Translations under genes and position numbers: made by a program | Notes under the pieces: model-generated | The model's database searches: none | Told to the model about the DNA's origin: nothing | What the model saw: only the letters and a program-made list of their open reading frames with translations | Origin: Tetradesmus obliquus | Taxonomy: Eukaryota; Chlorophyta; Chlorophyceae; Sphaeropleales; Scenedesmaceae | DNA: 64,000 nt | Direction of reading: 5' to 3' | NCBI GenBank assembly: GCA_030272155.1 | Contig: CP126198.1 | Span: 682,001 to 746,000, forward strand | Shown: one piece after another, positions 69-63,402 of the stretch | How the letters are laid out: each line of letters begins with the position of its first letter | Position numbering within the stretch: the stretch's first letter is position 1

Positions 69-620
69 GGCAAGGATGCCGCCAAGGAAGGCAGCAGCGC
101 CCTCACACTGTTGGACTACCAGCAGCATCCGCAGAACCCACTGCCTGTTGCTGCCATCCACCTTGCATGCTGCACCAAAAGCTGCCATCAAGCATCTGCA
201 CCACCACAGGGCAAAGATGCAGCTGCCGCAGGCAGCAGCGTTCACTCCTCAAGCACACATATCACTACATGTCTGCCACCATCTACGCTGTGATGGTTGC
301 GCGCAGGGCGCAAGGATGCAGCCAAGGAAGGCAGCAGCGCCCTTACGCTGTACCATTGAAACCCCTCTGCCTGTTGCTGCCATCTAGCTTGCATGCTGCA
401 CTGATTTCTGCCATCAACCATCTCTGCAACATTACAGGGCAAGGATGCGGCCAAGGAAGGCAGCAGCGCGCTGACGCTGTATCCATAAACCCTCTGCCTG
501 TTGCTGCCATCTAGCCTGCATGCTGCACTGATTTCTGCCACCAACCATCTCTGCAACATGGCAGGGCAAGGATGCAGCCAAGGAAGGCAGCAGCGCACTG
601 ACGCTGTATGACTACCAGCA
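69..620 (+). repeat. Acceptor-side array, 5 copies, RTEL1 exon 565
   Basis: The intron end plus the first ~45 bases of the exon ([14 protein letters not shown]) recur with copy starts near 69, 210, 307, 438 and the real exon at 565, each after a CAG. Spacing is 141, 97, 131 and 127 bp. Only the last copy continues into the motif Ia coding sequence. The copy at 307 carries an insertion and the copy at 210 is diverged. Bases 1-55 hold nothing I recognise. Confidence 0.85.
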
Positions 621-3600
621 GCAGCAGGCGGGCATTGGGGCACCTGCAGACCCAGCAGCAGCGCAGCACAAGGGCCCCTCCATCATCTACAGCAGCAGGA
701 CGCACAGCCAGCTGGCGCAAGTGATCAAGGAGCTGCGCAACACCAGCTACAGGTGCGGCCAGCTAGCGCTGCATATGCTAATGGCGTGTTATGCTGACAC
801 CAGCAGTGTTTGGTGGGAGGACCGGCCTGTCAATAGGCAACATCAAGGAGCTGCGCAACACCAGCTACAGCTGCGGCCTGCGTGGCATGCAACCATCCGC
901 TTGCACAGGATCTGTGTGAGTACTAAGCGTGAACGCAGCATGTGCACTGCTGTGTTATGGTCATGCCGACGTTGCTCCTTGTCGCACTAGGCAGGGTTGG
1001 AAACCGTCACTGCCCACTGCAGGGTGTTGTGCAGGCAGCAGCCTGCTGTCACATTAGTGAAGGGTGTGTCACCCGAGCATTACAACAACAATGTGTCCAC
1101 ACGAACCTCGTACTATGCACTACTCGCCTGCTTGCATGCAGCTGGCTGTAACCTCGGTGTCAACAGCAGCAGCCAGCTACCGTTTGTCAACAACTGCCAG
1201 TGCATGCACTGCAGTCTACACCTGCAATGGTAAGAGCACAGGCAATCTTGCTTGGCGCTGGTCTGCCACAGGCATTGCGTAGCCATTTTCACAGCACTGT
1301 GCGAGCTTGCTGTTTTTTTGCATCTCACACCCACGACAGTATCGGCAACTCAATACGAAGGAACCTATGTGCTGCGTCTGCAGCTGCCTGCAGGGTGCTC
1401 ACCAGTGTGCTGGGCTCCCGCAAGCAGCTGCATCTGCACCAAACCAAACTTAACACCGTCTGACCGTTGAACTTCCCCATACTGTGTGTTTTGGCTGCAG
1501 GGTGCGCACCACGGTGCTTGGCAGCCGCACACAGCTGTGCCTGCACTAAACCTAACACTGTCTAACTGATTTAACTCTGTTGCATCGTGCTGCGTCTGCA
1601 GGGTGCGCACCACGGTGCTGGGCAGCCGTACCCAGCTGTGCCTGCACGACAAGGTGTCTAAGCTTGCGGGGCAGGCCGCCAACTTCACCTGCAGGGCGCT
1701 GGTGGCGCACAAGCAGTGCAGGTGGTGAGTGCGGCTGGTTGTCTGGCTGGCTGCTTGGATGTGTGGTGACGTGCCTTTGAAAATCACGATGCGAGGTCCT
1801 GGCGGCGCACACGCAGTGCAGGTGGTGAGTGCGGCTGGCTGGCTGATGTGGTTTGCCTCACAAATGTGATGCGGGCTCTTGGCGGCGCACAAGCAGTGCA
1901 GGTGGTGAGTGCAGGGGCATTGGCTGGGCTGCTGCTGTTGTGGTGCGTTGGTGGCGCGCAAGCAGTGCCGGTGGTGAGTTTTGTTCTCCGTGCCTGAACG
2001 CCTGCTGCTGCTGGCGGCGGAACCAATTGTGGACCTGCAAGTTGTCGAGCAAGCTGGCTGCACTGCTGCGTCTTCCAAGCACACCCCTGGCGCCCGCTGT
2101 GGTCAGTTCGATGCATGTTCGTCGCCTTCATTGCTTGCAGGCACACCAAGCACTGCCAGGAGCGTGTGATGAACGATGTGATGAAGGCGCTGTCTGCTGC
2201 TTTTGCAGTGTGGTGTGGTGTGCTGCATGCTGGACGCCTGCTGCTGTGTTTGTTTGGCCTGCTGCAGGCACACCAAGCACCGTCAGCAGCGCGCGATGAA
2301 GGAGCTGGCTGCTGCTTTTGCGGTGTGGTGTGCTGCATGCTTGACGCCTGCTGATGTGTGTGTTTGGCCTGCTGCAGGCACACCAAGCACCGTCAGCAGC
2401 GCTCGATGAAAGAGCTGGCTCTGCTGCTGTTGCGGTGTGGTGTGGTGTGGTGTGCTGCATGCTTGACGCCTGCTGTTGTGTTGCTTTGGCCCGCTGCCGG
2501 CGCACCCAGCACCGCCAGGTGAATGCGCGATAGAGCTGTCTGCTGTTGCAGCTGCTGAGCACGACGCTGGCATATGTTGTGGGTTATGTCATGCGCTTCT
2601 CACGCCTGCTGTTGTGTTGCTTTGGCCTGCTGCAGGCACACCAAGCACCGGCAGGAGCGCGTGATGAAGGAGCTGTCTGCAGCTGCTTTTGCGGTGTGGT
2701 GTGCTGCATGCTTGACGCCTGTTGTTGTGTTGCTTTGGCCGGCTGCAGGCACACCAAGCACCGCCAGGAGCGCGTGATGAAGGAGCTGTCGTCAGCTGTG
2801 CCTGCACCGGTTGATATTGAGGAGCTGGTCAAGATCGGGCGGCATGCAGAGGTGGGATGGGCCGGATCTTATTCAGATCTTTAAATCACCACTGGAGATC
2901 TGTTGAATGTATATTGAAAACCGTGTGGTGATTGAGAAGCTGGTCAAGATCGGGCGGCATGCAGAGGTGGGGTGGGGCTGGTGGGGGCATCTGCTGCTGC
3001 TGCAGCAGCAGCACGCTGCAGTCACATCTTACTCTGCATGCGCTGGCACACGCCCCTGCAGCTGCTGTGCTGTTCATCGGCTCTGCAGCTGAGGGATTGC
3101 AAGCAGCAGTGTAGGCAGCGCCCTCCCCCTGATCTCCTGTTGATGAGTTATGAGCCTACACGATGCAGTGTTCTCTTGCCGCTCTGTGTGCATGTGGAGA
3201 CCACCTTGCAATTGCTGCTGTTTGTCGCTGGCCTCCCCCAGGTGTGCCCCTATTTCCTGTCGCGTGACATGGCCAACACTGCTGAGGTCATCTTCATGCC
3301 TTACAACTACCTGGTGGATAGCCAGGTGTGTTTGGGGGGAATGTTTGCAGCTTGCACCATAATGCCTTGAAATGGACTTGGTGGTGTAGCAATTGAGTGT
3401 GCAACACTGCTGAGGTCATCTTCATGCCATACAACTACCTGGTGGACAGCCAGGTGAGGCGGGGCTTTTTGCAGCTTGCACCATAATTGCCTTGAAATGG
3501 AAGTTGGTGGTGTAGTGATTGAGTGTGCAACACTGCTGAGGTCATCTTCATGCCACACTATACAACTAATTGGTGGACAGCCAGGTGAGGGTGCTGTTGT

Positions 3601-4032
3601 TTGCATTACCATCCGGCACTTTAGGGTTGTGCAGAGGAAGGCTTAGTACTGCTGAGGTCAACTTCATGCCCCCTACAACCACCTGCTCGACAGCCAGGTG
3701 TGTTCCCTCTTGCTCTTCGTTGTTCAGTTGGTGTTACTTGGACTTGCATAGGCATGAGAGCGGCTCTGGGGTTGTGCGTCGAGGTTTAGCACTGCTTAAC
3801 GTTACCTGTGGAGTCTGACATGCAACGTTGCATGGTGCCTGACTAGTGTGCAAACCGCTATATGATTATGCTCTGCACTGTCATGGTGTACTTGTTGTCA
3901 GGCAGCTGCTAGTATGCTGCACATGGCGCGCTCTCTGCAGCGGCTTTGTGTGCAGCTGCTAGTATGCTGCACAGCAGACTGGCGTGGTGTTGCAGCCGGC
4001 TCACTGCTGCTGCTGTCTGCCGCTGCCGCCGC

Positions 4033-4069
<37 letters not shown>

Positions 4070-7000
4070 GCAGTCTCGCAGCCAGCTGTCGGGCATCAAC
4101 TGGACCAATGCAGTCATCATCATCGACGAGGCACACAACATTCAGGCGAGACAGCATTGGTAGTTGCGGCACCTTGCGTCCTTTTGCGCATCAATGCCAG
4201 CAGACCTGATAAGCCAATGTGCAGAGGCCGATGCTGCCTGCCTGTCGCCACCTGCACCCCCGGGATACCTATCAGTCTTTTGAAAGTCAAATGCCGTTTT
4301 GCTTCTGCCGCCGAACATCTTGCGCATGGCCTGCAGGATGCGTGCAACAGCAACGCCAGCTTCGACTTGAGCGGGGATCAGCTGCTCGCAGCCATACAGG
4401 AGATGGAGTCAGCAGCAGGCGTGGTCAAGGTGCGGGGTAACCCGCGGGTTAATCCTAGACGTTAAGGGTTGGCTATCCATGGCTATCCATGGTTGACCAG
4501 TCGCATCTGTCACCATTTTGCTGGCCATTATCCAAAAGATTGCCCCCAGCAAGAGGGCGTCATCAGCGGGCGGGCACCCTGGTGGTAAGGAAGCCTGCTG
4601 AGCACTGCGATGCGCCTGCCTGCAATGCTGCTGCTGCTGCACGCAAACCTGCAGGAAAAAGTCAGCAGCGAGCCAACTTATGGCGGCAACAGCGGCTTGC
4701 CAAGCAAAGCAATCCGTCTGCCTGCTATGTGTCGTCCTGCCGCTGCACACAGTTCGCAAACGTGCTGATTGCTGCGCTGCGCACTTGCTGTGTTGCTGCG
4801 CTGTTGCTGCTGCAGGAGAACATCAGCAGCGGCCGCGCACAGGAGGGCCTCACTGTGTATCATGAGGGTGGTCAGCTGATGCCCAGCAGTGACGCCTGCC
4901 TGCAGTACTTCTGCCATTGCACTCAAAGTTTCAGGAGAACAGTAGCAGCGGGCAAGCGTACGGCGGTCACAGCAGCCTGCTAAGCAACTAAATGCGCGTG
5001 CCTGTATTGCCGCTGCATGACCACTCTTGCAGGAGAACATCAGCAGCGGCCGCGTGCAGGAGGGGCTGACGGTGTACCACGAGGGTGGACAGCTGATGCC
5101 ACCCAGTGACGTGCTTGACATCAGCCTGCCAAGCACCTCAACGCGCTTGGCTGCACTTCCGCTGCCGCTGCACACACCTGCAGGAACACTGAGGCAGCGG
5201 GCGCACACATGGCGGTCACAGTGGCCTGCTAAGCAATGCGACTCACTTGCCTGCTATGCTTCTTCCTGCCGCTACACCCACACTTGCAGGAGAACATCAG
5301 CAGCGGCCGTGCGCAAGAGGGGCTGACTGTGTACCATGAGGGTGGTCAGCTGATGCCCAGCAGTGACGCGGGGCAGCAGGCGGAGCTGCTGGACAGGCTT
5401 GGCCTGGGAGTGAAGCTGCTGAGCGGTGAGCTGTGTTTGGGGTTTAGGGCTTGGGTTTACGTCTTTCAGGGTTTATGGTTTAGGGTTGAGGCTTAGGGTG
5501 TACTGGGGCTGCTGGACAGGCTGGGCCTGGGAGTGAAGCTGCTGAGCGGTGAGCTGTGGTGTGGGGTCTGGGGTTTATTGTGTGGTTTACTCGTAATTAA
5601 TTGATTGTGTGGTTTACGGTTTGGGTGAGGCTTTGGTTTTGGGACTTTGGTTCATTGGGGCTGCTGGACAGGCTGGGCCTGGGGGTGAAGCTGCTCAGCG
5701 GTGAGCCGTGGATTGTGGTTCAGGGTTTGTGGGTGAGGTTTCTGTTCAGGGACTTTGGTGCAGTGGGGCTTTTGGGGAGGCTGGGTCTGGGAATGAAGCT
5801 GCTGAGCGGTGAGCTGTCTCTCCAGGGTTGATGTTTGGGGTTGAAGGTACAGCTCCAAGTGCAGTGTTGGGGTGTAGAGGAGCTGCTGGTCAGGCTGGGC
5901 CTGGGCGCCTGGCTTGAAGCTGCTCAGTGTGAGGCGCAGAGACGTGTGTGTGCCAAGGTATGCCCAGACACTGGCCCCGCCGAAATACCTACAGACACTG
6001 GCCCCGCCTAAATGCATACAGACACTGGCCCCGCCCGAATGCATACACAGTGGTGCTGATGTGCCCCGCCAACAGCCAGACAGTCTCCCGGAGTGAGTGA
6101 GTGAGTGACTACCCAGGCAGCTCTGCAGCTCCTGGGTAAGTTAAGGCTAAGAGGGTGTGTGTGGCCAGGGGCGGCGGCCCTGGGCTCCACACCCTCTACC
6201 CGCATCTATTGCAGTCTCCCGGCCCCGCGCACACACGCGCTGTGGTGCACACGGTGCTGTCGATCTGCCCCAGGCAGCATTGGGACGCTGCAAGCCGCCA
6301 TGCAACTCTTTGCAAGCTGACTACACACAGTCGCATAAATGCAGCAGCCCAACTGTGATGATTTGACACAGCTCTGTGCGCATGACCGTTCTACTTATCG
6401 ACTACTCAATTGCTGCAACTGCACTGCTGCAATGCACTGCCCGCAGCTCTCTACCAGCGCGTCTGTGAGCTGGACCCAGCAGCAGGGCCAGCAGCAGCAG
6501 CAGCAGCAGCAGGCGGCAGCAGCAGCGGCAGTGCATTAGGTGATGGCGTTGCTCACAAGGGTGAGGCGCTGCTGGCAATGCTTGGGGAGCTGCAGATCAC
6601 CCCTGAGTCGTACAGCGGGCACCTGCAGCCGCTGCTGATGGACGTGAGTGGACGGATAGTTCTGCATTTTTGGTTTATTGAATTGGCTGTTTGTGGATAG
6701 TTTTTGTACCGATGATTGCAGCAGAGTGGACTGTGCGTGGCTGATGGAGCTATGCGTTGCAGCTGAGCCTCACTAGCCGGTAGTTTTGGTTAGATTGTGC
6801 ATCAGCAGCAGCAGTACGGCCGTCCTCCTGGCGCTGCTGGCGATGCTTGAGGAGCTGCAGATCACTCCTGAGTCGTACAGCGGGCACCTGCAGCCGCTGC
6901 TATGTACGTGAGAGGACAGACAATGCTGTTTTGTGGTTTATTGAATTGGCTGTTTGCGGATGATATTTGTATTGATGATTGGAGCAGAGTCATCTGTGCA

Positions 7001-8741
7001 TGGTTGATGATGCTATGTGCAACTGAGGCCAACTAGCTGGCAGGTGACCATTGCAAATGTGCATCAGGATCAGCAGTGCGCACATCATACGTGCTTGCAT
7101 GCGCTGTGCTGTGCAGCTGCTGCAACAGCCGTGGCGGCTGCGTGACCCGCCCAGCATGTTGGTGAACCCCAAATTCATGTGCTGTTGCCACGCAGGCTGC
7201 TGGCGTGCTGTCTGATCATGAGCTGGCCAGCGGCAGGGCCATGGCCACAGGCTGGTTGATTGCCTCAATATGTTTTATGTAGCCATTTGCTGACATGCAT
7301 TACGTCTCTCTTACAATTTTTGCTGCTGCGCAGGCTGCTGGCGTGCTGTCGGACCATGAGCTGGCCAGTGGCAGGGCCATGGCTGCACGATCAGGCGTGG
7401 TGGCGGGCGGGTGAGTGCAGCAGCAGAGGGTGCAGCTATGCTCTGCATCAGCCTTCCCAGCGCGCAGCCAGCTGCATAGTAGGTGTGCATGGCTGCATGT
7501 GGGTGCATGTGGGTGCATGGCTGCATGTGGGTGCATGTGGGTGCATGGCTGCATGTGGGTGCATGGCTGCATGTGGGTGCATGGCTGCATGTGGGTGCAT
7601 GTGGGTGCATGGCTGCATGTGGGTGCATGGCTGCATGTGGGTGCATGGCTGCATGTGGGTGCATGGCTGCATGTGGGTGCATGTGGGTGCATGGCTGCAT
7701 GTGGGTGCATGGCTGCATGTGGGTGCATGGCTGCATGTGGGTGCATGGCTGCATGTGGGTGCATGGCTGCATGTGGGTGCATGGCTGCATGTGGGTGCAT
7801 GGCTGCACGATCAGGCGTGGTGGCGGGCGGGTGCGTGGGTGTTGGGCAGGGAAGAGGCTGGCTGTGCTTGCCTTATCGGATGGGGTTAATTGCGTTGGCC
7901 CACAGGAGCAGGAGCAGGCGTGGTGGCGGGCGGGTGAGCAGGTTGTGAGCTGAACATATAACTGCCTGCCCGATGCACTGGCAGCTGCACACAGTATATG
8001 CGCCATGTGGTGGCGGGCGGGTGAGTGCAGTGGCACAGGGCGGAGCTATGCACTGCGTCAGTCTCCCCAGCGCAGCAGCAGATACACAGTAGGTGTGTGC
8101 GACGCTATGGCGCCCACCCTCACAAGCTGTGGCTGCTGCTGACTGCGTCCTGATGTGGCTGTTGGTCGGGATGGCAGGCATGCTGAATTGCTTCAGCTGC
8201 ACACTGTTGTAGCTATTTATGCGTGCTGACTTGTGTGCACTGCGACCCATCTCTTGTGCAAGCTGTCTCTGCTGCTGGCTCTCTTGTATCAATTGCGCGC
8301 TGAACTGCTTGCGCTGGGCTTCCACATGTTCCGTTGCATCGCAGGCTGTCTGCACTGCTGGCGGCGCTGGACATTGTGTTTTGCAGCTGCACCTGCTGCG
8401 CCGTCGTCTGAATTGCTGTTGTGTTGCTGTGCATTGCAGGCTGTCTGCGCTGCTGGCGGCGCTCGACATCGTGTTTGCCAGCGCCCTGCCGCTTTGGATC
8501 GACCCTGTGAGGCGCGTCAACGGGCCACCGGCACACCGCGGCTACCGCATGTTTGTGCACAAGCCTGAAAACAAGCAGGGGGGCGGCAAGGTGAGCAGGA
8601 GTCACAGAGCTCAGTCGGATTGCTGTTTGCAGTGACAGCGCTTGACGATGTGTGCGTAGGCAGCATGTTGTGCCGCAGCTGCTGCAGCGCCAGGGCACAA
8701 AACACATGCTCTGCTCCTGCTGGTGCCACTGCTGATGATGC

Positions 8742-8785: not shown

Positions 8786-11212
8786 AGAAGGGCCGGGGCA
8801 CACTGGTGATGGGCGGCTCCCCTACGCTGAGCTACTGGTGCTTCATCCCAGGTGGGGTTGAAAGTAAAAAGAATGCAACCTGGATGAAGGAATGCAATGT
8901 GTGGGTCAGCTGCGTGGCGTTACGGCTTACTGACAAACCTATTTACTGTAGGCCTGTCCATGGTCAGCCTGCGGCAACTGCCGCTGCGCAGCGTGCATCC
9001 GACCATCACTGACTTGTGTGTGGCTGTAGATCCCAACTGTTTATCTGTTTTTGGGGGCCGTGCCACTGCAGGCGTGCCCATAGCCATGTGGCGGCAGCTG
9101 TACAGTAACCATCGACTTGGCGATTGTGGCTTCATTGTTTACGTGCTTGCTCACTGCGCTCGTGTGTCTGCCTATTCAAACCTTCAAACCGCAGGCGTGT
9201 CCATGGTCAGCCTGCGGCAGCTGCCGCTGCGCAGTGTGCTGCTCACCAGCGGCACACTTTCACCCCTGGAGTCCTTTGCGCACGAGCTGCAGCTGGGGTT
9301 CAAGTACACACTGGAAAACCCGCACGTCATCAACAACGACCAGGTGGGCTTATATCAAGCAGCCAGTTTTAGCAATGTGTTTGCGCACGAGCTGCAGTTG
9401 GGGTTCAAGACACCCTAGAAAACCCACACGTCATAAACAATGACCAGGTGGGATGCTGGATTTGTATGCAGGTGCTCAATAACCTGAAATCATGTCTACT
9501 TGGAGCTCATGCGGCTGGCAATGCCTGCTATGTCAGATCGTGCTCTCAATGCACCTGTGCTGCTGACAGGCGTGCTTTGCCATGACCATTGACTGCACAG
9601 CCTGCTGTAAGCAAGCAGCGCTTCTGCAGATGTGTGTTGTAGCCTGCCCATGCTGCTGCCGCTCTTGCCAGCTTTGGGTGCGGCAGGGTTAGGCTGGGCG
9701 CCACAGCTGTAAATGCATGCAGCCACGAGCACACAGATCTGCCTGCTTTGGTGATAACGCCACTGCTGCTGCTGCTGCTGTTGCTGGCAGGTGTGGGTCG
9801 GTGTGATTGGCTCGGGGCCGACTGGCGTTACTCTCAACTCCAGTTTTGCCAACAGGAACAGCGACAGGTGCGGGCGGCGTTCCAAACAATATGCAGTATG
9901 TGACGCAGCATGTGCAGTACATGCCAGCTCACGTGCAACCATTATTGCCAAGTTACCACAGTCGGGCCGCAGGCCCACCCACTGAAGAGCCAGATGAGGC
10001 TCATGGGGTGCAAATGGTGACGGCTGGCCATAGTGTTCCTGTTGGCGACAGGAACAGCAACAGGTGCGGCTGGGGTTGATGACGCAGCTTATGGTGTGGC
10101 TGACGGTGGTTGATGCAGCTTGTGCACTATGTGCCAGCCCAATCTGAACGGGGGAAAATCTGGTTGGGCGCTGCGCTTGGGGCTGCGCTAGACACATTGT
10201 GTCATGCGGCAGGGTGAGCGGGGCAACATTCGGATGCATGCAAGCAGGCTAGCCAAACATGTGACTCGCATATGTCTGCTGCACTCTGCTGCACGCTGCA
10301 GGTACAAGGACGAGCTGGGCCACGCCATCGTCAACATTGCACAAATTGAAAACTTGATCAACACCATGTACATTGCGCCTGTGGTGGTATGATGCCTTGC
10401 AGGTACAATGATGAGCTGGGGCACGCCATCGTCAACTTTGGCACGGTGACACAGCATGTGCACCACATGCAAGGCAAACGCATCCCTATCTTTGCGCGCT
10501 GACACAGCATGTGCAGCAGATGCCAGCCATATCACCTAAACCACGACATCTTCTGCACGCTTGCCTATTTGTGCTGCAGGTACAAGGACGAGTTGGGCCG
10601 CGCCATAGGCAACTTTGCACAAATTGAAAACTTGATCAACACCATGTACATTGCGCCTGTGGTGGTATGATGCCTTGCAGGTACAAGGATGAGCTGGGGC
10701 ACGCCATCGTCAACTTTGCACGGGTGGTGCCTGACGGGCTGCTGGTCTTCTTCCCGGCCTACGGCGTCATGCAGAGCTGCCTGGACCACTGGAAGGCCAG
10801 CAGCGGGCCAGGTGCGGCGCTGCTGCTGCTGTGTGTGTTGTATCGTGCTGGTGCTGTTCTGTGATGCAGGCTCTGACCACTGGAAGGCCAGCAGCGGGCC
10901 AGGTGCGCCGCTGCTGCTGCTGCTGCTGCTGCTGTGTATGTGTAGGTGTGTGTGTTGCATTGAGCTTGTGCTGTTGTGTACTGCATGCATGCCTGGACCA
11001 CTGGAAGGCCAGCAGTGGGCCAGGTACGGCGCTGCTGCTGCAGTGTGTGTTGTATTGTGCCGGTGCTGTTCTGTGATGCAGGCTCAGACCACTGGAAGGC
11101 CAGCAGCGGGCCAGGTGCGGCGCTGCTGCTGCTGTGTGCGTATTGTGCTTGTGCTGTTGTGTACTCCGTGCATGCCTTTACCACTGGAAGGCCAGCAGCG
11201 GCCCAGGTGCGG

Positions 11213-11269
<57 letters not shown>

Positions 11270-39144: not shown

Positions 39145-39826
39145 GCGGCAGCAGCAGTGTGAGTCAGCCTTGTTGTGTCAAACTCTGCTGAAAGCCATAT
39201 ACGTCAATCTCCCTCCTCAGACCGCCCACACACTCCTGACACCACTTCAACCCAGCATGTTCCGATTGACACGGCTGCAACATGATGGTTCACACTTGTA
39301 CCCTCCCACTCACGTAATCCTGTCGTTGGTTGCACAGTTCAACCACGTTGCTACTGCCAGCCGCACCTCACAGCCGCACTCACCGCCAGCCCTGGCACCT
39401 TCGCAATGTCTCCCAGCCGCCTGCTGCCCCGCCGTCCCGCCGCCCCGCCTGGATGTACTCCCCGGGGCTGATGCGGCCTCATTGCACCACGCTCATAACA
39501 AAAATGCCGCGACATCATACATCCGCTCTCACGCGCTGCAGCTCCACCAAACCACAGTATCGTTGGTAGCGCCACCCGCTCGCACCAATACCGCCAGTCC
39601 CAGTCTTTACTAGCCAGCCCCAGATCCACACTCACCGCCAGGCCTGGCACTTCTGCGATGTCTCCCAGCCGCCTGCTGCCCCGCCGCCCCGCTTGAATGT
39701 ACTCCCCGGGGCTGATGCGGCTGAAGGCCGACTGCGTGAAGGCGCCGGCCTTGACTGCAGCCACCATGTTGGCAGCGCTGACAGGCGCCAGCTTGCCATA
39801 CAGGCCTGCGGGAGTGAAATTGGCGG

Positions 39827-47875: not shown

Positions 47876-48775
47876 CGCCCCTCCTGCTGCCATCAAGGCA
47901 CTATGCGTGCCACTCTCAACAACGCTGCCAGCCTGCACCACTGCCACCATGTCTGCGCCTGTCACTGTGGAGAGCCGGTGTGCGATGACCATGACGCTGC
48001 GGTTGCGCGCAGCCTCCTGCAGCGCCTGCTGCACCTGCACAGTCAAAGAACCATGACAGAGTCATAAACAGCAGAACACATAAGGACGTACAAGGGTTAC
48101 TAAAGCAACGCATTTTGGCAGCTGGGAACAAAGAAGAACACAACAGGTGCGTGCGCTGCATGCTGCAGCCGCAAAAATCCTTGTGGCGCTAAGGCAACAC
48201 ACCCACAGCCTAAAACAAACTGCGCAGCATGCGGTTCACCAGGTGCTCGCTCTCCGCATCCAGTGCGCTGGTAGCCTCGTCCAGCAGCAGCAGCCGCAGC
48301 ACTCCCGGTGTGCACATGCACATGCAGCAACTTGAACCAACACCCCATTTCCCGACAGCCTCACCAGGTGCTCGCTCTCCGCATCCAGTGCGCTGGTAGC
48401 GTCGTCCAGCAGCAGCAGCCGCGGCGCGCACAGCAGTGCACACATTTTCAAGCAACAACACCAGCAACACAATTCCCAAAAGCCTCACCAGGTGCTCACT
48501 CTCCGCATCCAGCGCACTGGTAGCCTCATCCAGCAACAGCAGCAGCAGCAGCAGCAGCAGTGCGTACATTTACCAGCAAAAACAACAATGCAATTTCCAA
48601 AAGCCTCACCAGGTGTTGACTCTCCGCATCCAGCGCGCTTGTTGCCTCATCCAGCAGCAGCAGCCGCAACAGCAGCAGCAGCCAGTGCTCACATGCGCAT
48701 GCAACAAAACCAGCAATGCACTTCTCACATTTCTCACCAGGTGCTCGCTCTCTGCATACAGAGCGCTTGTGGCCT

Positions 48776-48817
<42 letters not shown>

Positions 48818-51860: not shown

Positions 51861-51897
<37 letters not shown>

Positions 51898-54800
51898 GCA
51901 GCAGCGGCGGCAGCGGCAGCGGCAGCAGTGAGGACATGCAGCAGTCGGCACATGCAGCAACAGCAGAAGCCAGCACAGGCACAGGAAGGACAGGTACAGG
52001 AGCCACACAAAACAACAAGGACAAGAGGCAACTGGACTTAGCGGTTGGAGATCACAGCCACATGAATTGCATGTGCAGGCACAGTCAAGCAGAGATGTAC
52101 CTAACCACCGCTGCGATGAGTGAAGCTGCCGTCATACAGCAGCAGCAGCAGCACCCGCACCAGCAGTAGCACCAGCAGCAGAAGCACCGGCGGCGGCAGC
52201 AGCAGCAGCAGAAATGACTTAAGCAGATGTATCTACTCACCGCTGCAATGAGTGAGGCTGCCGTGCCAGCGATGCCTCCCGCGCTGCTGCAGACAGAAAG
52301 CAAGCACAAACGGAGCACAAACAAAACACACGCTACTGTATTGGAGCAGCTGCTTACCGCTGCGATGAGTGAGGCTGCCGTGCCAGCGATGCCTCCCGCG
52401 CTGCCACTGACAAACAAGCAAGCACAAACAGGGCACAAACCAAACACACGCTACTGTATTGGAGCAGCGGTAAGTAGCAGCTACTTACCGCTGCAATGAG
52501 TGAGGCTGCCGTGCCAGCGATGCCTCCCGCGCTGCCGCAGACAGAAAGCAAGCACAATCAGAGCACAAACCAAACACACGCTACTGTATTGGAGCAGCGG
52601 TAAGTAGCAGCTACTCACCGCTGCAATGAGTGAGGCTGCCGTGCCAGCGATGCCTCCCGCGCTGCCGCAGACAGAAAGCAAGCACAATCAGAGCACAAAC
52701 CAAACATACGCTACTGTATTGGAGCAGCGGTAAGTAGCAGCTACTCACCGCTGCAATGAGTGAGGCTGCCGTGCCGGCGATGCCTCCTGCACTGCCACTG
52801 ACAAAGATGGCGTACAGCATGTAGGCGTTGAGGTCGCCTAGGGACATGTCACCCTGCAGCACCAGCACCGCGCCGTACCTGGTGGCAGCAGCAGCGGCAG
52901 CGGCAGCAGCAGCATCTTCCACAACAGCACCTTCCAGCATGGAGATCCAGATGCATTTGATCTACGTTTGTACAACACAACATAAATCGTAACACAATGC
53001 GTCGAAAGCAACCAGTTTGCGTAACAACAGTACAGCGATTATAGCACATTGCATTCTCACCACAGCACCACCATCATGGAGCCGAATGCAAAGGGGGTGG
53101 CTGAGCCAGTAAACACACCACATCGCTTACTTGTGTATAGCACAACATATATACTCTGATCATATTATAGTCTCACCACAGCACCACCATCATGGATCCA
53201 AAGGCAAAGGGGATGGCACTGCCAGTGAAAACTCCACCTGCAGACCGCAGCGCAGCACACCCGTAGAGAGTGGCAGTCAGTTGACGGGGTTGGCAGTGAG
53301 ACACAAGAGCAACAGGCATGGAAACTTGGCTTGACTTGCAAGCACCTTCCAGCTTTCACAGTGCGCATCACATCTGTTGCTTACTGCAGTTGGCGCCGTC
53401 TTTGCATTTTAATATCACTTTTGCAGTCCACTCACTTGCCACTGCGCTCTTCAGGCCCCACGACAGTATGTCATTTGCGGCAGATGTGTACCTGCAGCAC
53501 AATTGGCAGCAGCGGCAGCTCCAGCCGCATCAGCGCATTGCAGATCAAATGCATTGCCTGCTGGCTGGTTTGGTTACAAACGCCTGTTCATGCACGAAAT
53601 ACAAAGAAACAACAGCTGCATGCTCATCAGTATGTTGTATGAAAAGGCGTGTTGCACCACTGCCGCCATTGTGATAGGCTGACCGCTGCTGATGTCCATC
53701 ACTCACTTGCGCACGATGTGTCCCTCCTTGGCGAATGACTTCACGGTGCGTATGCCTGGCAGCACCTCCTGCACGGTGGCTGCCCCAGCCCCCAAATCCA
53801 AACCCCAAAAATACCAACACAGGCCTAGCATTTCATCAATTACAGCTAGTCTGTGCCACTGCTCACTTGCGCACGATGTGTCCCTCTTTTGCAAACAACT
53901 TCACAGTGCGGGTGCCTGGCAGCACCTCCTGCGCAGTTGCTGCCCAGCCCCCTAAACTTTCGACCCTAGATGCTGGCCATCCGATGCATTGGGTGAGTGT
54001 GCTGTGCTGCCCTCCGCATCTAGCACATGTATGCATCAGCAGTAACAGCAACTCTTAAACATTGTTTGCAAAGCCCAAGCAATGTACCCAAGACGGCCTC
54101 TGCGCGTTGCTCACTTGCGCACGATGTGTCCCTCTTTTGCAAAAGACTTCACTGTGCGAATTCCCGCCAGCACCTCCTGCGCGGTGGCTGATGCTGCCGC
54201 TGCTGATGTCAGCTGCGCCGTCACGTAGCGCTTGTTCAGGCCTGCAGCAGTTGAAGAGATAAAACAACAAGTGCAGGAGACTTGGTTGTCAAGCACGTGG
54301 CAAAGAAGTGTGCGGTACGTGCAAGGCGGCTGCTGCTGATGTCAGCTGCGCCGTCACGTAGCGCTTGTTCAGGCCTGGAGTAGTGAAGGAGATAAACAAT
54401 AAGTGCAGGAGATTTAGTTGTCAGGCAGGTGGCAGGAGATGTGTAGGGCAGGAGTGAGGCGGCTGCTGCTGATGTCAGCTGCGCCGTCACGTAGCGTTTG
54501 TTCAGGCCTGAACAAAGCAAAGGATAGGTGAAAACAAGATTATGGTGTGAGGCAGGTGGCAGGATATGTGTGAGGCAGGAGTGGGGCAGGTGTGAGGCTG
54601 CTGCTGCTAACGTTATGTTGCATGTCAGTAGCAGTGGCAGAACGTGTATTGCAATAAAAGCATTTCTTTCAACAGCCTTGCCGTGCCACTCACATGCACA
54701 AGGCCGCAACGCCAGCAGAGTCACCAGCAGGGTGGCGCAGGTGAGGATGCTGGCATTACGCCATTGCTGTAGCTCTACGCTCCAAACATGCTGTTCCCGT

Positions 54801-55333
54801 GCCACTCACGCGCAAAGGTCCGGAACATGAGCAGTGTCACTGGCAGTGTGGCGCAGGTGAGGCTGGCCAGCCGCCAGGAGGTGATAACGATGTGCAAGAT
54901 AAGCGGTTTGCAGTGTGGGAATTCTGTTTCTGCCGTGCATGTGACACACTACAGATGGGGCCTTGTGTGTGCTCTCATATGCTGCTGTAAGCTGCCACTG
55001 CTAAACCCCTGACACCCTAGCCCCGAAAGCATGTTTCGGCTGCGCATGAAAGCCCTAGAAACTGTTGCGTTGGCTGCAAGACTCACGCGCAAAGGTCCGG
55101 AACATCAGCAGTGTCACCGGCAGGTGAGGTTACCAAGAGTATTTGAGTGTAGGTCACAGTAATGTTATGTAACCTTCCTGCCGGGCATGTTGTAACATCC
55201 CTGCTGTGTCACTCACGCGCAAAGGTCCGGAACATCAGCAGCGTCACCGGCAGTGTGGCGCAGGTGAGGCTGGCCAGCCGCCAGGAGGTGATGAACATCA
55301 TGACAGCACCCAGCACACACGTCAGCAACGACC

Positions 55334-55370
<37 letters not shown>

Positions 55371-55870
55371 CACCGCAAAGACAGCCTTCAAAATGCTACG
55401 TACTGCTGCTGGGCCAACTGCTGCAGCAATGCTGCTGCGGGGCTCTGCTGAGTGTGACATGCTGCTGTCACCCAACACAAATGCTGCTGCTGCTGAGCTC
55501 CAGCGCTCCTGCTTCTGCCAGACCTAAATGCTCCGGCTACACCTGCTGCTGCTGGGCCGTAGAACCGCTGCTGCTTAAGCCGCCAGGCCCCAGTGCTCAT
55601 GCTGCTACTGTTGCACTGCCGGCCTCACCTAAGCATCATGCTGATGCTGGTGGTGGCTGCATCCTTCATCGCGTTGCCAGGCCCAAATGCACCTGCTGCT
55701 GCTGCTGCTGCTGCTGCTGCTAAGCTTCCGTGCTGCTGCTGCTGCTACCAACATGCTCACCGGAGCATCATGCTGATGCTGGTGGCGGCTGCATCTTCCA
55801 TGGTGCGCATGATGAAGGTAAGCATGTACACTGTAATACCTCCCGCTGCCGCGGCAGCAGGATGCTATTC

Positions 55871-55908
<38 letters not shown>

Positions 55909-56103
55909 CTCCAGTGCTGCTGCTGCAGCCAGGCCCCGCTGCTGCTGCTGCTACCAGCATGCTCACCTGAGCATCATGCTTATGCTGGTGGTGGCTGCGT
56001 CCTTCAATGCGCGTGTGTCCTCTGACAGCCTGTTGCTGAGCTCGCCCACGGGGGTGACGTCAAAGAAGGCCACCTCCTGCTGCACCAGCTGCATGGTTGG
56101 AAT

Positions 56104-56142
<39 letters not shown>

Positions 56143-56731
56143 ACCCATTCAGCAGCAGCAGCAGCAGCAAACTTATACAGCAGGGCAGCAACAGGCTTCA
56201 ACATGGTGTGGAGGCATGCTGAGAAGTGACGTCAAAGAAGGCCACCGCCTGCTGCACCAGCTGCATGGTCGAAATCAGCAGCAGCAGCAAACCCAGTCAG
56301 CAGCAGTAAGGCAGCAGCAGGCTTCAACATGCTCTGGAGGCATGCTGAGGGTGACGTCAAAGAAGGCCACCTCCTGCTGCGCTAGCTACAGTGAATGAAC
56401 AACGACCAGAAAACGGCAGCAGCAGCAGCAGCAGCAACAGCAGGTCAGAATAATGGCATGCCAGGTGAGCTGTGCTGTGAAGACGTGTCACAGAAGGCCA
56501 CCTCCTGCTGCACCAGCTGCAGCGCACATACCACAACCAGCAGCAGCAGCAGCAGCAGCAGTAGCAGCAGGTCATAAGAAGGCTTGCCAGGAGAGCTGTG
56601 CCATGAAACTCTGCCAGTCAAGGCCGTTTGCTGCTGCACCAGCTGCATGACTGACATCAGCAGCAGCAGGGTAGCCAAGCATAACAAGAGTGTAGCTAGA
56701 TTCTACACAGTGACATTGAACAGGGGCACCT

Positions 56732-56771
<40 letters not shown>

Positions 56772-59703: not shown

Positions 59704-59756
<53 letters not shown>

Positions 59757-61681
59757 AGGTGAACGACCAGCTGCTGGTGCAGCCTCAGGCGGTGCTGCTG
59801 TCGCTGGTGCGCGCGCTGCACGTCATACGCGGCGTGCTGCAGGAGGTGCGTGGCATGTGGCCTGCGTGCTGCTGTCAGGCTGTGTGTTGCGCGTGGGTGA
59901 TGTAAGCAGGCGTAATGTGTTATTGCATGGCAGCTACAAGGGGACGCGCTGTTATCAACATCTGCAGCAGCAGCTAGACTGGCGCACTGGACATAAGGGT
60001 GCCTGCAGGACGGTCCCGTGTACGTGGTGGAAACCAGCGCACACTTGATGTCAAATGTGCCATGTATGCCGTTTGCTGCTGCAGTTCACTTGTTACCCTT
60101 GCAGGACGGCTACGTGTACGTGGTGGGCACCCACCGCCTGCTGTCCCCGCTGGTCACAATTTTGTTTCTCGTACTCTTCCTCTCACTCTTTTGCTTTGTT
60201 TCACGCTTGCAGGACGGCCATGTGTATGTAGTGGGCACCAACCGGCTGCTGTCCCCGCTGGTCACACTTCTGTTCCTTGTACTCTGCTGCTCACACTTGT
60301 TGTTCCTGTCACACTTGCAGGATGGCCACGTGTATGTGGTGGGCACCAGCCGGCTGCTGTCCTCGGCTAGTCACACCTTGTTGCTGGCACTCTTTGTCTC
60401 ACTTTTGCTTTGTTTCACGCTTGCAGGACGGCCATGTGTATGTGGTGGGCACCAACCGGCTGCTGTCCCCACTTGGCCACACTTCTTTCTGCATAATCTG
60501 CTGCTCACACTTTTTTTGCTTGTGCTACATTTGCAGGACGGCCACGTGTATGTGGTGGGCACCAACCGTCTGCTGTCCCCACTGGTGAAGGCCGCTGCCG
60601 CCAGCTGCCTCAACCCCAACATGTGGTTCACTTCATCAGCATGGTCGCCCGGCACGCTCACCAACTACGCCAGCAGCAGGCGGCTCTTCAAAGAAGGCCA
60701 CCAGCCCAACAGGAGGTAAGTCAAAGAGGCTGTCTGCAAGATACGTTGTGCAGCGATGCACGTAATATCTTGTTGCAAGGCAGCAGAGAAAGCAGAGGAA
60801 GCGGCTCTTCAAGGAGGGCCACCAGGAGGTGAGGCAAAGAGGTGAGGCAAAGAGGCTGCTGAGGTGAGGCAAAGAGGCTGCTGACTGCTACACCTCTTGA
60901 TACATGCATGATAATGTTAAGTCAAAGTGGCTCTTGATGTCGCAGCTGCTTGCCGCCACCCTTGTCCTTCAACCTTACTTTCACTCTTCTTGTACCATTT
61001 TCACGTAGGCTGCTTGCCGCCAAGGGCCTGCGCATGGTCACTGCGCTGTGTCCCTCCCCACCCACCAACTATGATCAGTCCTTGTGTCGTTTGCTGTTGC
61101 TTGCCGCGCAGGCTGCTGGCTGCAAAAGGGCTGCGCATGGTCAACTCACTGTGCCCCGAGCCCCCGCTGTCCTCCTCCCCAGTGCCGCGGCTGTCCTGGG
61201 ACGACAAGTGGCTGCTGTACAAGCGCAGCAGGCGGCCCGGCTACAGGCAGCTGCTGGAGCAGCTGCTGCAGCAGGAGGACGCGCTGCACAGGTGGGGCGC
61301 ATGTGTTTGTTATCTGGTTTGTATAATTCTGTTCCTGCTGACGGCCCGGCTACAGGCAGCTGCTGGAGCAGCTGCTGCAGCAGGAGGATGCGCTGCACAG
61401 GTGAGGGGCTGGGCTGTACAGCCGTGCGGCATGTGTTTTGTTGTGTTTTCCTGTAGCCTGGCTGGCGGGCTAGCAGGCTGTTGGCTGCTGCTGGAGCAGC
61501 TGCTGCAGCAGGAGGACGCGCTGCATAGGTGAGGCGCATTCAGTTAGTGTTTTGTAGGTGTTCCTGCAGGCTGGCTGGTTGGCTGCTGGCTGCAGCAGGA
61601 GAAAGCGCTGCACAGGCGCATGTGGTTTGTTTGTTGGTGTTTTGTTCGTGCTGGCTGGCTGGCAGGCTGGCTGGCTGGCTG

Positions 61682-61717
<36 letters not shown>

Positions 61718-61736
61718 GCTGGCTGGCTGGCTGGCA

Positions 61737-61781
<45 letters not shown>

Positions 61782-61792
61782 GCTGGCTGGCA

Positions 61793-61825
<33 letters not shown>

Positions 61826-63402
61826 CTGCTGCTGGAGCAGCTGCTGCTGCAGCAGGAGGACGCGCTGCACAGAGGCGGCCTGCTGCAGCTGCAATGAGGC
61901 TGGCTGGTGGCCGGCTTCTTCCACTGAGCCACACATAGGGTCTGCGCATTGCAGTGATGCTGCATCTGTAGTACCTTCATGACTCAACACAACACAAGCA
62001 CTGCTACACCTGCCTGCGTGCTGTGCAGGTTCAAGCCGGCGGGCTCGCTGCGCGGCATGCCGCGCCACCTGCGGCTGATGGTGTTCCTGGACACCACGCG
62101 CAACACGGTTGCAATTAAGGAGGCGTTCAACCGCAACATCCCTACCATATCGCTGGTGAACACCACCAAGGACTTGTCACTCATCACGTACCCGGTGCTC
62201 GCCCGGGACTTCAGGTGTGTGGGGCGATGCGCATTCAGGTGCTTGTTGCTGCTCTGTTGGATGTAGATGGTGTGGGGGTCCTGGTGTGGCATGTGTGACT
62301 TTGTGGTCGACAGAACGGTTTAGGACCTCGTCTTGGCTTGCATTTTGGTCATGTTGGCCATCAAGGAGGCCTTCAACCGCAACATCCCCACCATCTCACT
62401 GGTCAACACCACCAAGGACTTGTCATTGATCACATACCCGGTGCTGGCGCGCGACTTCAGGTGCGGCTTTATGTGTGACAGCGTTGCCTACTAGCAGCAG
62501 CAGATGATTCCTGCAAATTCGTCCTGCAAGCTTGTTGCTGAGCGATGAATAGCATGTCGCTACACGCCTAGCTTGACCCTTGCTGTGCTGGCGCTGGATT
62601 TTGACTGTGCATCTGCTGCGCTTCGGCTGCGACGGTATGCCTGCAAATGCATGTGCCGGTGTTTTGCTGCTCCTACGTGTATGCATTGTGTCTGCCTGAC
62701 CTCTGCCATCGCGCGTGCCTGAAGCACAGATGCGGAGCTGCACTGTTGAGCTGTCCCTCTCCTCCTGCGCAGCTGTGCTGGATGCTAACCCAGCGTCGCA
62801 TGCATCCTGCTGCTGCATCCTGCTGTTTCTTGCTGGATCTGCTGCTGCTTGCAGCCCCGCCTTTGTGCACTTCTTCCTGGACTGGATCGTCAAGGTGCAT
62901 GCAATTGTGTCTGCCCTGCCCTCTGCCATTGCGCGTGCCTGTAGCACAGACTCAGGGCTGCACTGTTGAGCTGTCCGTCTCCTCCTGCGCAGCTGCTTTT
63001 GTTGCTAATCTTCGCATGCTTCCTGCTGCTTGCTGCCTGTGTTCTTGTGCCGCAACGCAGCCCTGCCTTTGTGCACTTCGTCCTGGACTGGATCGTCAAG
63101 GTGGCAAATGCACTTGTGCTTGCCCGACCTCTGCCATTGTGCGTGCCTCAAGGACAGGCTCGGAGCTACGGTATCGAGCTGTCCCTCTCCTCCTGCGCAG
63201 CTGCTAGTGTTGCTAACCCAGCTTCAAACGTGTTCTGCTGTGGCCGACTGCTGTTTGCTGCATGTCATTGTTTTCTGTGCTGCTGCGCAGCCCTGCCTTT
63301 GTGCACTTCTTCCTGGACTGGATCGTCAAGGTGGCCAACGCAGCTCCTGGGGAGGCAGGCAGGCAGCGGCAGCAGCTGCTGGAGGAGGCGCGGAGCGGCT
63401 AG
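58602..63402 (+). CDS. Mitochondrial-type ribosomal protein uS2
   Basis: Small-subunit ribosomal protein uS2, probably organellar. Exons: 58602-59045, 59379-59444, 59759-59845, 60537-60715, 61112-61291, 62029-62214, 63291-63402; all phases join. The start MMCLFRRVYATHVSSCSK has Arg and Ser but no acid, like a mitochondrial presequence, followed by a Q/S-rich extension. The conserved core is SPSWNAQLSPYLMQVNDQLL, ALHVIRGVLQE, GHVYVVGTNRLLSPLVKAAA, WSPGTLTNYASSRRLF, LRLMVFLDTTRNTVAIKEAF, NIPTISLVNTTKDLSLITYP and FVHFFLDWIVKVANA, following the bacterial RpsB order (GTLTN, then D-T-N/T-x-D region). A long insertion (LSWDDKWLLYKRSRR, LLEQLLQQEDALHR) separates the two halves. Stop TAG at 63400. Confidence 0.9.
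60009..60590 (+). repeat. Acceptor-side array, 6 copies, uS2 exon 60537
   Basis: The exon start (DGHVYVVGTNRLLSPLV) follows TTGCAG at 60009 (decayed), 60105, 60213, 60321, 60427 and 60537 (real). Spacing is 96, 108, 108, 106 and 110 bp, the most regular array in the window. Every copy from 60105 on has an acceptor and an open frame over the exon part. Confidence 0.95.
60790..60895 (+). repeat. Donor-side copy of uS2 exon 60537-60715
   Basis: The exon end encoding RLFKEGHQ recurs with its end at 60828 and GTGAGG, 113 bp after the real donor. It is followed by three short repeats of GAGGTGAGGCAAAGAGG. Confidence 0.8.
61009..61880 (+). repeat. Arrays on both sides of uS2 exon 61112-61291
   Basis: The exon start (LLAAKGLRMV) occurs at 61009 and 61112 (real). 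The exon end (LLEQLLQQEDALHR) ends at 61291 (real), 61400 and 61528, with decayed ends near 61614 and 61871. Confidence 0.9.
61648..61828 (+). repeat. GGCT/GGCA tetranucleotide microsatellite
   Basis: About 180 bp of (GGCT)n with GGCA interruptions, between two decayed exon-end copies in a uS2 intron. GGCTGGCT is present in small numbers next to earlier copies, so it grew locally. Confidence 0.9.
62355..62465 (+). repeat. Donor-side copy of uS2 exon 62029-62214
   Basis: The exon end encoding AIKEAFNRNIPTISLVNTTK through VLARDF is repeated once, ending at 62460, 246 bp after the real donor. The copy is open and nearly synonymous in its changes (GGCG/GGAG class third-position differences). Confidence 0.92.
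62855..63350 (+). repeat. Acceptor-side array, 3 copies, uS2 last exon
   Basis: The exon start (PAFVHFFLDWIVKV) follows GCAG at 62855, 63061 and 63291 (real), 206 and 230 bp apart. The intron parts share CTGTCCCTCTCCTCCTGCGC. Confidence 0.92.

What the first reader, a model, noticed from the sequence alone, without database searches (positions are those of the whole stretch)
69..63402. Splice junctions carried in tandem arrays across five unrelated genes
Seen directly: in the RTEL1, YIPF, cyclophilin, ABCB and uS2 genes most introns contain extra partial copies of the adjacent exon with its splice site, from one to nine per junction. I count roughly 40 arrays in 64 kb. The units span the exon-intron boundary. 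I know of no described gene architecture where this is a gene-wide habit. It could be a mutational process that targets splice junctions, a splice-site redundancy system, or tolerated slippage.
Basis: seen in the sequence. Interest (0 to 1): 0.9.

Follow-up and report, generated by a model that had tools for sequence, protein, structure and literature searches.

The report
Exon-end copies fill algal introns
In the green alga Tetradesmus obliquus many introns are stretched by tandem copies of the neighbouring exon's end together with its splice site, and those copies look as if they keep being refreshed from the working exon, a gene architecture I could not find described.

Summary
Confirmed, and wider than claimed. 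I modelled ten genes by spliced protein alignment, four in the window and six at arbitrarily placed loci (98 introns kept of 103). Copies of an adjacent exon end with its splice site occur in 57: 34 of 44 introns of window genes, 23 of 54 elsewhere. Non-adjacent exons: 0 hits in 10,388 pairs. There are 165 copies, 89 donor-type and 76 acceptor-type, median period 130 bp. Intron length = 292 + 140 x copies, r 0.91. Repeats not tied to an exon end: 1 of 98 introns. Similarity covers an exon piece plus about five intron bases, then drops; GT kept 83/89, AG 68/76. Changes shared by copies are mostly synonymous; private ones are nearer neutral; indels mostly break the frame. Best reading: junction-spanning tandem duplications whose exon parts are re-homogenised by recombination with the working exon while spacers decay. 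Homogenisation is inferred; no splicing function is shown; no relative's DNA and no RNA were available.

The parts
65..482 (+). RTEL1 intron 3, acceptor array, 4 copies (its 3 donor copies lie upstream of the window)
842..881 (+). RTEL1 intron 4, donor copy x1 (GT lost)
1383..1546 (+). RTEL1 intron 4, acceptor x2
1799..2685 (+). RTEL1 intron 5: donor x3 (1799-1979), acceptor x5 (2136-2685)
2931..2976 (+). RTEL1 intron 6, donor x1
3402..3704 (+). RTEL1 intron 7, donor x3
4811..5111 (+). RTEL1 intron 9, acceptor x2
5505..5927 (+). RTEL1 intron 10, donor x3
6830..7245 (+). RTEL1 intron 11: donor x1 (6830-7043), acceptor x1 (7183-7245)
7798..8399 (+). RTEL1 intron 12: donor x3 (7798-8097), acceptor x1 (8327-8399)
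8934..8996 (+). RTEL1 intron 14, acceptor x1
9380..9452 (+). RTEL1 intron 15, donor x1
10295..10620 (+). RTEL1 intron 16, acceptor x3
10875..11875 (+). RTEL1 intron 17: donor x4 (10875-11211), acceptor x2 (11601-11875)
12322..12484 (+). RTEL1 intron 18, acceptor x1
12882..13681 (+). RTEL1 intron 19: donor x3 (12882-13217), acceptor x2 (13328-13681)
14151..14840 (+). RTEL1 intron 20, donor x3, about 130 exon bp each
33395..33543 (+). YIPF intron 4, acceptor x2
33808..33977 (+). YIPF intron 5, donor x2
34686..34723 (+). YIPF intron 6, acceptor x1 (found only with the junction-including query)
34998..35317 (+). YIPF intron 7, donor x3
35670..35806 (+). YIPF intron 8, donor x2
38120..38407 (-). 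cyclophilin intron 6, donor x3, 118-bp period
38628..38659 (-). cyclophilin intron 5, acceptor x1
39366..39424 (-). cyclophilin intron 4, donor x1
39883..40030 (-). cyclophilin intron 3, acceptor x2
48236..49286 (-). ABCB intron 10, donor x9, about 125-bp period
49706..50682 (-). ABCB intron 9: acceptor x4 (49706-50509), donor x1 (50603-50682)
51044..51368 (-). ABCB intron 8, acceptor x2
52233..52673 (-). ABCB intron 7, donor x4, 130-bp period
53055..53121 (-). ABCB intron 6, donor x1, covering the whole 61-bp exon
53702..53942 (-). ABCB intron 4, donor x2 (exon part 76 bp, intron part 5-7 bp)
54326..55123 (-). ABCB intron 3: acceptor x2 (54326-54510), donor x3 (54671-55123)
55624..55802 (-). 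ABCB intron 2, donor x2
56226..56521 (-). ABCB intron 1, acceptor x3
60098..60586 (+). uS2 gene, acceptor-type array of about 108-bp units (DGHVYVVGTNRLLSPL repeated); gene not modelled
62129..62480 (+). uS2 exon end (IKEAFNRNIPTISLVNTTKDLSLITYPVLARDF) present twice, 246 bp apart; gene not modelled
62862..63340 (+). uS2 region, exon piece reading LDWIVKV repeated, motif found three times; gene not modelled

Best explanation
These are junction-spanning tandem duplications that lengthen introns, with the exon as anchor. Shown: a unit of about 130 bp (an exon end with its splice site plus about 80 bp of intron-side spacer) occurs once or several times inside the intron beside that exon, and each copy goes with about 140 bp of intron. 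Inferred: the first duplication is ordinary and unselective; one that spans a single donor or acceptor is tolerated because the original outer site can still be spliced. Spacers and intron-only duplicates decay and lose homology. The exon end cannot decay, because selection keeps the working exon, so the exon is a permanent island of homology; recombination (gene conversion or unequal exchange) between working exon and copies keeps overwriting the copies' exon piece and the few conserved splice-site bases beside it. That would give the sharp edges at about +5 and -4, retained GT/AG, older differences of coding type, younger differences nearer neutral, and the near absence of intron-only arrays.
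For: Strictly local: 56 of 98 introns hit by their own exon, 0 of 10,388 non-adjacent pairs; 0 hits between different introns. Length = 292 + 140 x copies, r 0.91; length minus copied exon pieces still grows by 81 bp per copy, so whole units were added, not exon pieces alone. All 32 introns over 600 bp have copies; the 41 introns without copies have median 263 bp, the 57 with copies minus array span 278 bp. Identity falls from 0.91 at intron base +5 to 0.55 at +6, and just upstream of the acceptor. Counted without alignment: 0-fold sites 2253/2467 same, 4-fold 526/686, adjacent intron 615/1155, chance 0.27; 54 of 74 arrays have 4-fold above intron identity, 17 below, 3 ties. Exon ends stay 78-86% alike between members whose spacers show no similarity. 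Changes shared by several copies are 57/69 synonymous and those private to the working exon 44/57, against 28% expected without selection; changes private to one copy 210/419, falling to 14/36 in arrays of five or more (a second way of sorting gave 115/140, 44/57 and 152/348). 33 of 37 indels in exon parts are not multiples of three. Four of four copies in ABCB intron 9 keep Ser524, as in two other T. obliquus proteins, where this exon has Ala.
Against: Recombination is inferred, never observed; no second strain's DNA or reads could be fetched. The 4-fold/0-fold divergence ratio is 4.4 (bootstrap 3.6-5.4), above the about 2 that a simple clock gives for neutral copies reset from one exon; it needs higher mutability of 4-fold sites, two-way exchange, or diverged templates. 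In the 53 full-length copies 4-fold divergence (0.226) exceeds intron divergence (0.148), which simple duplication does not predict. The nearest copy is the most similar in only 14 of 26 arrays, so there is no clean age order. Exon ends are somewhat less alike where spacers are unlike (for example 0.78 against a mean of 0.82 for neighbours), so exon and spacer history are not fully separate. Transversions at 2-fold third positions are rare among private changes (13 of 49, against 51 of 94 at 4-fold), so some coding constraint shows even there. Of 228 amino-acid differences in copies only 18 equal a relative's residue. The narrow period (104 of 165 between 80 and 149 bp) is unexplained. Selection alone on copies, with 4-fold sites of the working exon nearly frozen, comes close to the identities.
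Confidence: 0.5

Rival explanations
1. Tolerated tandem duplication only: units arise by slippage or unequal exchange, survive when they span a single splice site, and then decay; no homogenisation and no function.
For: No inverted copies and only 1 of 165 copies holding a whole exon, no repeats inside exons after masking: the pattern left by selection against harmful duplications. Donor and acceptor ends about equal (39 vs 35 arrays). Private changes nearer neutral. In about a third of copies the intron part is still alignable.
Against: 0-fold sites 91% and 4-fold sites 77% identical while the seven intron bases beside the splice consensus are 53%. Intron-only repeats in 1 of 98 introns against 74 junction arrays, where random placement of 130-bp units in 270-290-bp introns would give roughly half as many (my estimate, not a run simulation; unselected duplicates also fade faster).
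Confidence: 0.17
2. Diverged alleles as templates: in a diploid, hybrid or very diverse lineage, breaks near a junction are repaired or crossed over unequally with the other haplotype, so copies arrive already synonymously different and with a different intron behind them.
For: Older differences are coding-like and exceed a simple clock; spacer similarity is clear (z>3) in only 26-36% of pairs. The paper on Scenedesmus sp. NREL 46B-D3 predicts some scaffolds to be an alternate or secondary haplotype (PMC7955037, passage). Two other T. obliquus ABCB proteins are 98.8% and 97.8% identical to this gene's translation.
Against: Allelic divergence of about 20% at 4-fold sites would usually leave introns alignable (general knowledge). 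Full-length and short copies have similar exon divergence. Ploidy of this strain is unknown here.
Confidence: 0.15
3. Functional use: the copies serve as spare or regulated splice sites or alternative exon ends.
For: GT kept 83/89, AG 68/76; the +1 to +5 pattern of a real 5' splice site; synonymous signature of older changes. The deposited model OEZ86_014084 of this locus contains copies as extra exons.
Against: Use of a copy would be in frame and stop-free in only 16 of 165 cases; 33 of 37 indels break the frame; private changes nearer neutral; two other T. obliquus proteins and one Scenedesmus protein lack the extra exons. A gene model is not expression evidence.
Confidence: 0.1
4. A process directed at splice junctions, such as RNA-templated repair from pre-mRNA, that inserts exon-end pieces.
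For: Near exclusive junction anchoring and sharp edges beside the splice consensus.
Against: Each copy goes with about 80 bp besides the exon piece; no AG/GT signal at inner breakpoints; about a third of copies carry the aligned intron part too.
Confidence: 0.06
5. Assembly artefact.
For: Tandem arrays are a classic assembly hazard.
Against: Exon parts of copies differ from the exon by about 10%, mostly at third codon positions, and copies occur in genes on five contigs (C8, C2, C10, C14, C15).
Confidence: 0.02

Closest known systems
Intron gain by tandem genomic duplication (review PMC3443670, passages seen; Drosophila cases PMC2891723, passages seen)
   Same: A short tandem duplication in a gene is tolerated because splicing hides it, and duplicated exon sequence ends up inside an intron.
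   Different: There an exonic AGGT is duplicated and a new intron results. Here introns are lengthened, each copy carries only one splice site (1 of 165 holds a whole exon), and arrays reach nine copies in many genes.
Polyubiquitin arrays of dual-specific splice sites (PMC10809524, abstract and outline seen)
   Same: Tandem array of splice-site-bearing coding units within a gene.
   Different: There complete coding monomers are delimited by AGGT sites that act both ways; here partial exon ends.
Intronic minisatellites or tandem repeats with concerted evolution (recalled)
   Same: Local tandem units, copy-number growth, homogenisation.
   Different: Here almost every array is anchored on an exon end, and it is the exon part rather than the whole unit that stays alike.
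Introners (PMC9860276, seen in a search listing only)
   Same: Many introns of one genome share an origin type.
   Different: Introners share sequence between introns; here 0 hits between different introns.
Mutually exclusive exon clusters such as Dscam (recalled)
   Same: Several versions of an exon side by side.
   Different: Those have both splice sites; here 1 of 165 copies covers a whole exon.

Membership tests
Intron gain by tandem genomic duplication | duplicated segment holds AGGT, and the intron runs from the first copy's GT to the second copy's AG | tested here: not met
   Copies carry one site type each: 39 donor and 35 acceptor arrays; 1 of 165 copies holds a whole exon
Intron gain by tandem genomic duplication | intron absent at that position in relatives | not testable with these tools
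   Only proteins, not genomic DNA, of relatives could be fetched
Introner | homologous sequence shared by many introns | tested here: not met
   0 intron-intron hits at E<1e-4 among 98 introns
Mutually exclusive or cassette exon array | each copy has acceptor and donor | tested here: not met
   1 of 165 copies holds a whole exon; no AG/GT enrichment at inner breakpoints
Mutually exclusive or cassette exon array | copies appear in mRNA | not testable with these tools
   No transcript reads available
Minisatellite / tandem array | head-to-tail units of similar length | tested here: met
   Median period 130 bp, 104 of 165 between 80 and 149 bp; Tandem Repeats Finder rows
Minisatellite / tandem array | whole unit homologous between copies | tested here: inconclusive
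   Intron part aligned over >=90 bp in 53 of 165 copies, 15-89 bp in 18, under 15 bp in 94
Concerted evolution | copies more alike than the age of their flanks allows | tested here: met
   4-fold 77% against adjacent intron 53% identical, P 3e-24; 54 of 74 arrays in this direction, 17 opposite, 3 ties. Frozen 4-fold sites in the working exon would weaken this
Concerted evolution | species- or strain-specific changes shared by exon and its copies | not testable with these tools
   No second strain DNA

The most novel reading that the evidence does not exclude
Introns of this alga hold reservoirs of former exon ends that exchange sequence with the working exon in both directions: the exon is the master that keeps the copies spliceable, and the copies feed synonymous variants back. 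Intron length in Scenedesmaceae, and perhaps the long introns of other green algae, would then be set by this exon-anchored recombination cycle rather than by transposons or regulation.
Probability: 0.25. Interest if true: 0.92.

Novelty: new variant of a known kind. Interest (0 to 1): 0.8.

Why it matters
A published table gives predicted mean intron length 462 bp for T. obliquus against 230, 302 and 284 bp in three other Sphaeropleales and 270 bp in C. reinhardtii (PMC5966456, passage). Here each copy goes with about 140 bp and introns without copies have median 263 bp, so junction arrays could account for that excess. Why introns of core-Reinhardtinia algae stay longer than the minimum is called unknown in PMC8226300 (passage). 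The arrays also hold past exon states inside the same gene, offer a test bed for intron growth, and warn gene predictors: the deposited model of this ABCB locus lists copies as exons.

Tried and rejected
Mini-exon idea (copies bounded by AG and GT): rejected, no AG/GT enrichment at inner breakpoints. Insertion of exon pieces alone: rejected, the residual grows 81 bp per copy. Pure ladder of ages by distance: weak (mean rho -0.29; nearest most similar in 14 of 26). In-situ coding selection as sole cause: not favoured but close to the edge. Introner-like dispersal and inverted copies: none. A ranking of ORFs by amino-acid composition was not decisive; spliced alignment replaced it.

Limits of the counts. 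Dropped before counting: U2AF introns 4-7 and DGAT intron 1 (unsure models), 5 of 103. RTEL1's main model is the locus's own deposited protein (P0121); both ends of 10 of its 20 introns were found by all three homologues, while ends found by at most one of three are both ends of introns 3, 9 and 13, the acceptors of 10 and 20, and the donor of 12. YIPF, CRY, cyclophilin and DGAT models rest on one protein each. Of the 11 exon pieces, eight gave a usable protein among the 120 listed; uS2, an exostosin-like gene (L020) and a gene of L013 did not, so those genes are not in the census. The six other genes are conserved genes at loci I placed at round coordinates, not a random draw of genes. Triplet repeats were masked, so copies made of CAG runs are missed. 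In one search internal repeats within 130 bp of an array were assigned to it; in the 41 introns without copies alone, 1 has an internal repeat. An earlier count gave 29 of 33 frame-breaking indels; the count is 33 of 37.
Full report
What and where. The window is C8:682001-746000 of a genome of 104,662,953 bases in 17 contigs. The lengths of C8, C2, C10 and C15 equal the contigs of NCBI proteins OEZ86_014084, OEZ86_000105, OEZ86_005216 and OEZ86_009697 of Tetradesmus obliquus, so the organism is that green alga.

Gene models. I wrote a spliced protein-to-DNA aligner. The ABCB gene (minus strand, 57274-47747) has 11 exons and 10 GT-AG introns; another T. obliquus protein (OEZ85) and one from Scenedesmus sp. 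NREL 46B-D3 give the same ten introns (the last added one near the C-terminus). RTEL1 was modelled on its own deposited protein and compared with six homologues, three of them in the final run: both ends of 10 of 20 introns were found by all three. YIPF and cyclophilin were modelled on one protein each. To get genes not chosen for their repeats, I took 20 stretches of 10 kb at round coordinates, picked exon pieces by codon score and fetched proteins with a chimeric query. That gave DDX41, a UBA-domain protein, cryptochrome/photolyase (residues 1-410 of 511), U2AF35 (first three introns kept), DGAT (residues 85-351) and FTHFS; three other pieces gave no usable protein. Of 103 introns 98 were kept. 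Eight of the ten proteins and the uS2 pieces were scanned and confirmed by Pfam; U2AF35 and DGAT carry their precomputed Pfam accessions.

The census. With triplet repeats masked, exons were compared with all introns. The adjacent exon hit 56 of 98 introns; there were 0 hits in 9,306 pairs from different genes and 0 in 1,082 non-adjacent pairs of the same gene. With queries that include the junction, 165 copies in 57 introns were found: 89 donor-type and 76 acceptor-type, in 39 donor and 35 acceptor arrays, 17 introns having both. Window genes: 34 of 44 introns and 103 copies; genes at the other loci: 23 of 54 introns and 62 copies, by gene DDX41 2/13, UBA 4/10, CRY 6/9, U2AF 0/3, DGAT 0/5, FTHFS 11/14. 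The distance between successive copies has median 130 bp, 104 of 165 values lying between 80 and 149 bp. By a cruder measure, local 14-base repeats cover 0.175 of the window and on average 0.158 of the 20 stretches, two of which are satellites; without those two the mean is about 0.10 and single stretches range from 0 to 0.28. The habit is therefore genome-wide but patchy, and the window is richer than average.

Intron length. Introns without copies have median 263 bp (n 41, maximum 557), with copies 670 bp (n 57); all 32 introns above 600 bp have copies; after subtraction of the array span the latter have median 278 bp. Length regresses as 292 + 140 per copy, r 0.91, and after removal of the copied exon pieces (mean 62 bp) still grows by 81 bp per copy. 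So each event adds an exon piece and a spacer. In print, T. obliquus has a predicted mean intron length of 462 bp against 230, 302, 284 and 270 bp in R. subcapitata, M. neglectum, C. zofingiensis and C. reinhardtii (PMC5966456, passage).

Junction anchoring. One intron of 98 had an internal repeat outside any junction array (repeats within 130 bp of an array were assigned to it); no exon had an internal repeat after masking; no two different introns matched. Donor and acceptor ends are about equal. Exon-side ends of the alignments lie 14-132 bp from the junction without a splice-type motif. One copy of 165 spans a whole exon.

Where similarity stops. Around the donor, ungapped identity between working junction and copy is 0.96 and 0.97 at GT, 0.91 at +5, then 0.55 at +6; around the acceptor it is 0.96 at -1 and 0.64 at -5. 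Alignments run through the junction in 153 of 165 copies; GT is kept in 83 of 89 and AG in 68 of 76. The intron part aligns over 90 bp or more in 53 copies, 15-89 bp in 18, under 15 bp in 94, with similar exon divergence in the first and last class. In the 109 copies with under 50 bp of aligned intron, similarity of the next 60 bp is low (median z 0.8; 56% below 1, 21% above 2).

Codon signature. Differences between exon and copies fall 188, 151 and 575 at codon positions 1, 2, 3. Divided by history: changes carried by two or more copies are 57 of 69 synonymous, changes private to the working exon 44 of 57, changes private to one copy 210 of 419 (arrays of two or more), 49 of 114 (four or more) and 14 of 36 (five or more), with 28% expected without selection. 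A slightly different sorting gave 115 of 140, 44 of 57 and 152 of 348. 31 of 165 copies have an indel in the exon part, and 33 of 37 such indels break the frame. So older changes look as if they happened while the sequence was a working exon, and younger ones in sequence that mostly is not. Eighteen of 228 amino-acid differences in copies equal the residue of a relative and 210 do not; all four copies in ABCB intron 9 have Ser524 as in two other T. obliquus proteins, where the exon has Ala. Some copies thus keep former states of the exon.

Why duplication and decay alone do not suffice. Counted from the junction without alignment, 0-fold sites are 91.3% identical, 4-fold sites 76.7% and the seven intron bases beyond the splice consensus 53.2%, chance being 26.9%. 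If copies decayed freely since the unit was duplicated, 0-fold sites should be about half as far apart as intron sites; they are much closer. Coding selection on the copies could protect 0-fold sites but not 4-fold sites, unless the 4-fold sites of the working exon were nearly frozen, and frame-breaking indels speak against it. Overwriting of the exon piece from the working exon explains both. Between members whose spacers show no similarity, exon ends remain 78-86% identical, slightly below the average of all pairs.

What does not fit. The 4-fold/0-fold ratio of 4.4 (3.6-5.4) is above a simple clock, and 4-fold divergence exceeds intron divergence in full-length copies. Two-way exchange, higher mutability at 4-fold sites or diverged templates (another haplotype) are the candidates; an alternate haplotype was predicted in Scenedesmus sp. 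NREL 46B-D3 (PMC7955037, passage). Weak hits are few in the remaining introns (2 of 82 cognate pairs at E<=1, other genes 11 of 3,991), which fits upkeep better than a spectrum of ages. The period is not explained.

Function. Nothing here shows that copies are used. The deposited model of this ABCB gene (P0003, P0004) lists copies as extra exons, but two other T. obliquus models and the Scenedesmus one do not. Use of a copy would be in frame and stop-free in 16 of 165 cases.

Literature. Nine searches of the held library: two for the T. obliquus genome and seven for the architecture. In the listings of the latter I saw no description of junction-anchored exon-end arrays; listings were capped and most subscription papers are not in that library. 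Passages were read in PMC5966456, PMC3443670, PMC2891723, PMC8226300, PMC7617258 and PMC7955037, and the abstract and outline of PMC10809524. Closest are intron gain by tandem duplication and polyubiquitin's dual-specific sites, where the units are delimited by AGGT and spliced.

Verdict. I file it as a new variant of tandem-duplication-driven intron change, with the exon as selection-kept anchor. The homogenisation step is inferred and testable with a second strain.

Noticed in passing
window 47747-57274 (ABCB): The deposited protein models OEZ86_014084 of this locus (P0003, P0004) contain array copies as extra exons and start at an internal methionine; two other T. obliquus models do not.
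   Followed up: partly
window 7471-7807: Array of 18-bp units (GCTGCATGTGGGTGCATG, about 19 copies) inside RTEL1 intron 12, of a different kind from the junction arrays.
   Followed up: no
window 61650-61825: GCTG tetranucleotide run of 44 copies within the uS2 region.
   Followed up: no
window 4146: RTEL1 intron 8 begins with GC (GCGAGA), supported by three of three homologues.
   Followed up: no
window 40001-46000: Stretch almost free of local repeats (0 to 0.03 per kb bin), with a coiled-coil-like coding region on the plus strand at about 41.6-46.4 kb. Why some genes lack arrays is open.
   Followed up: no
L010 and L012 (10 kb each): Two of 20 stretches are dominated by long-period repeats (bins near 310, 330, 360, 400 bp) with lower GC, 0.49 and 0.48; possibly centromeric.
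   Followed up: no
window, whole: CAG/CTG-type triplet runs are very frequent.
   Followed up: no
window 53055-53121 (ABCB intron 6): The only copy of 165 that covers a whole exon (61 bp).
   Followed up: no
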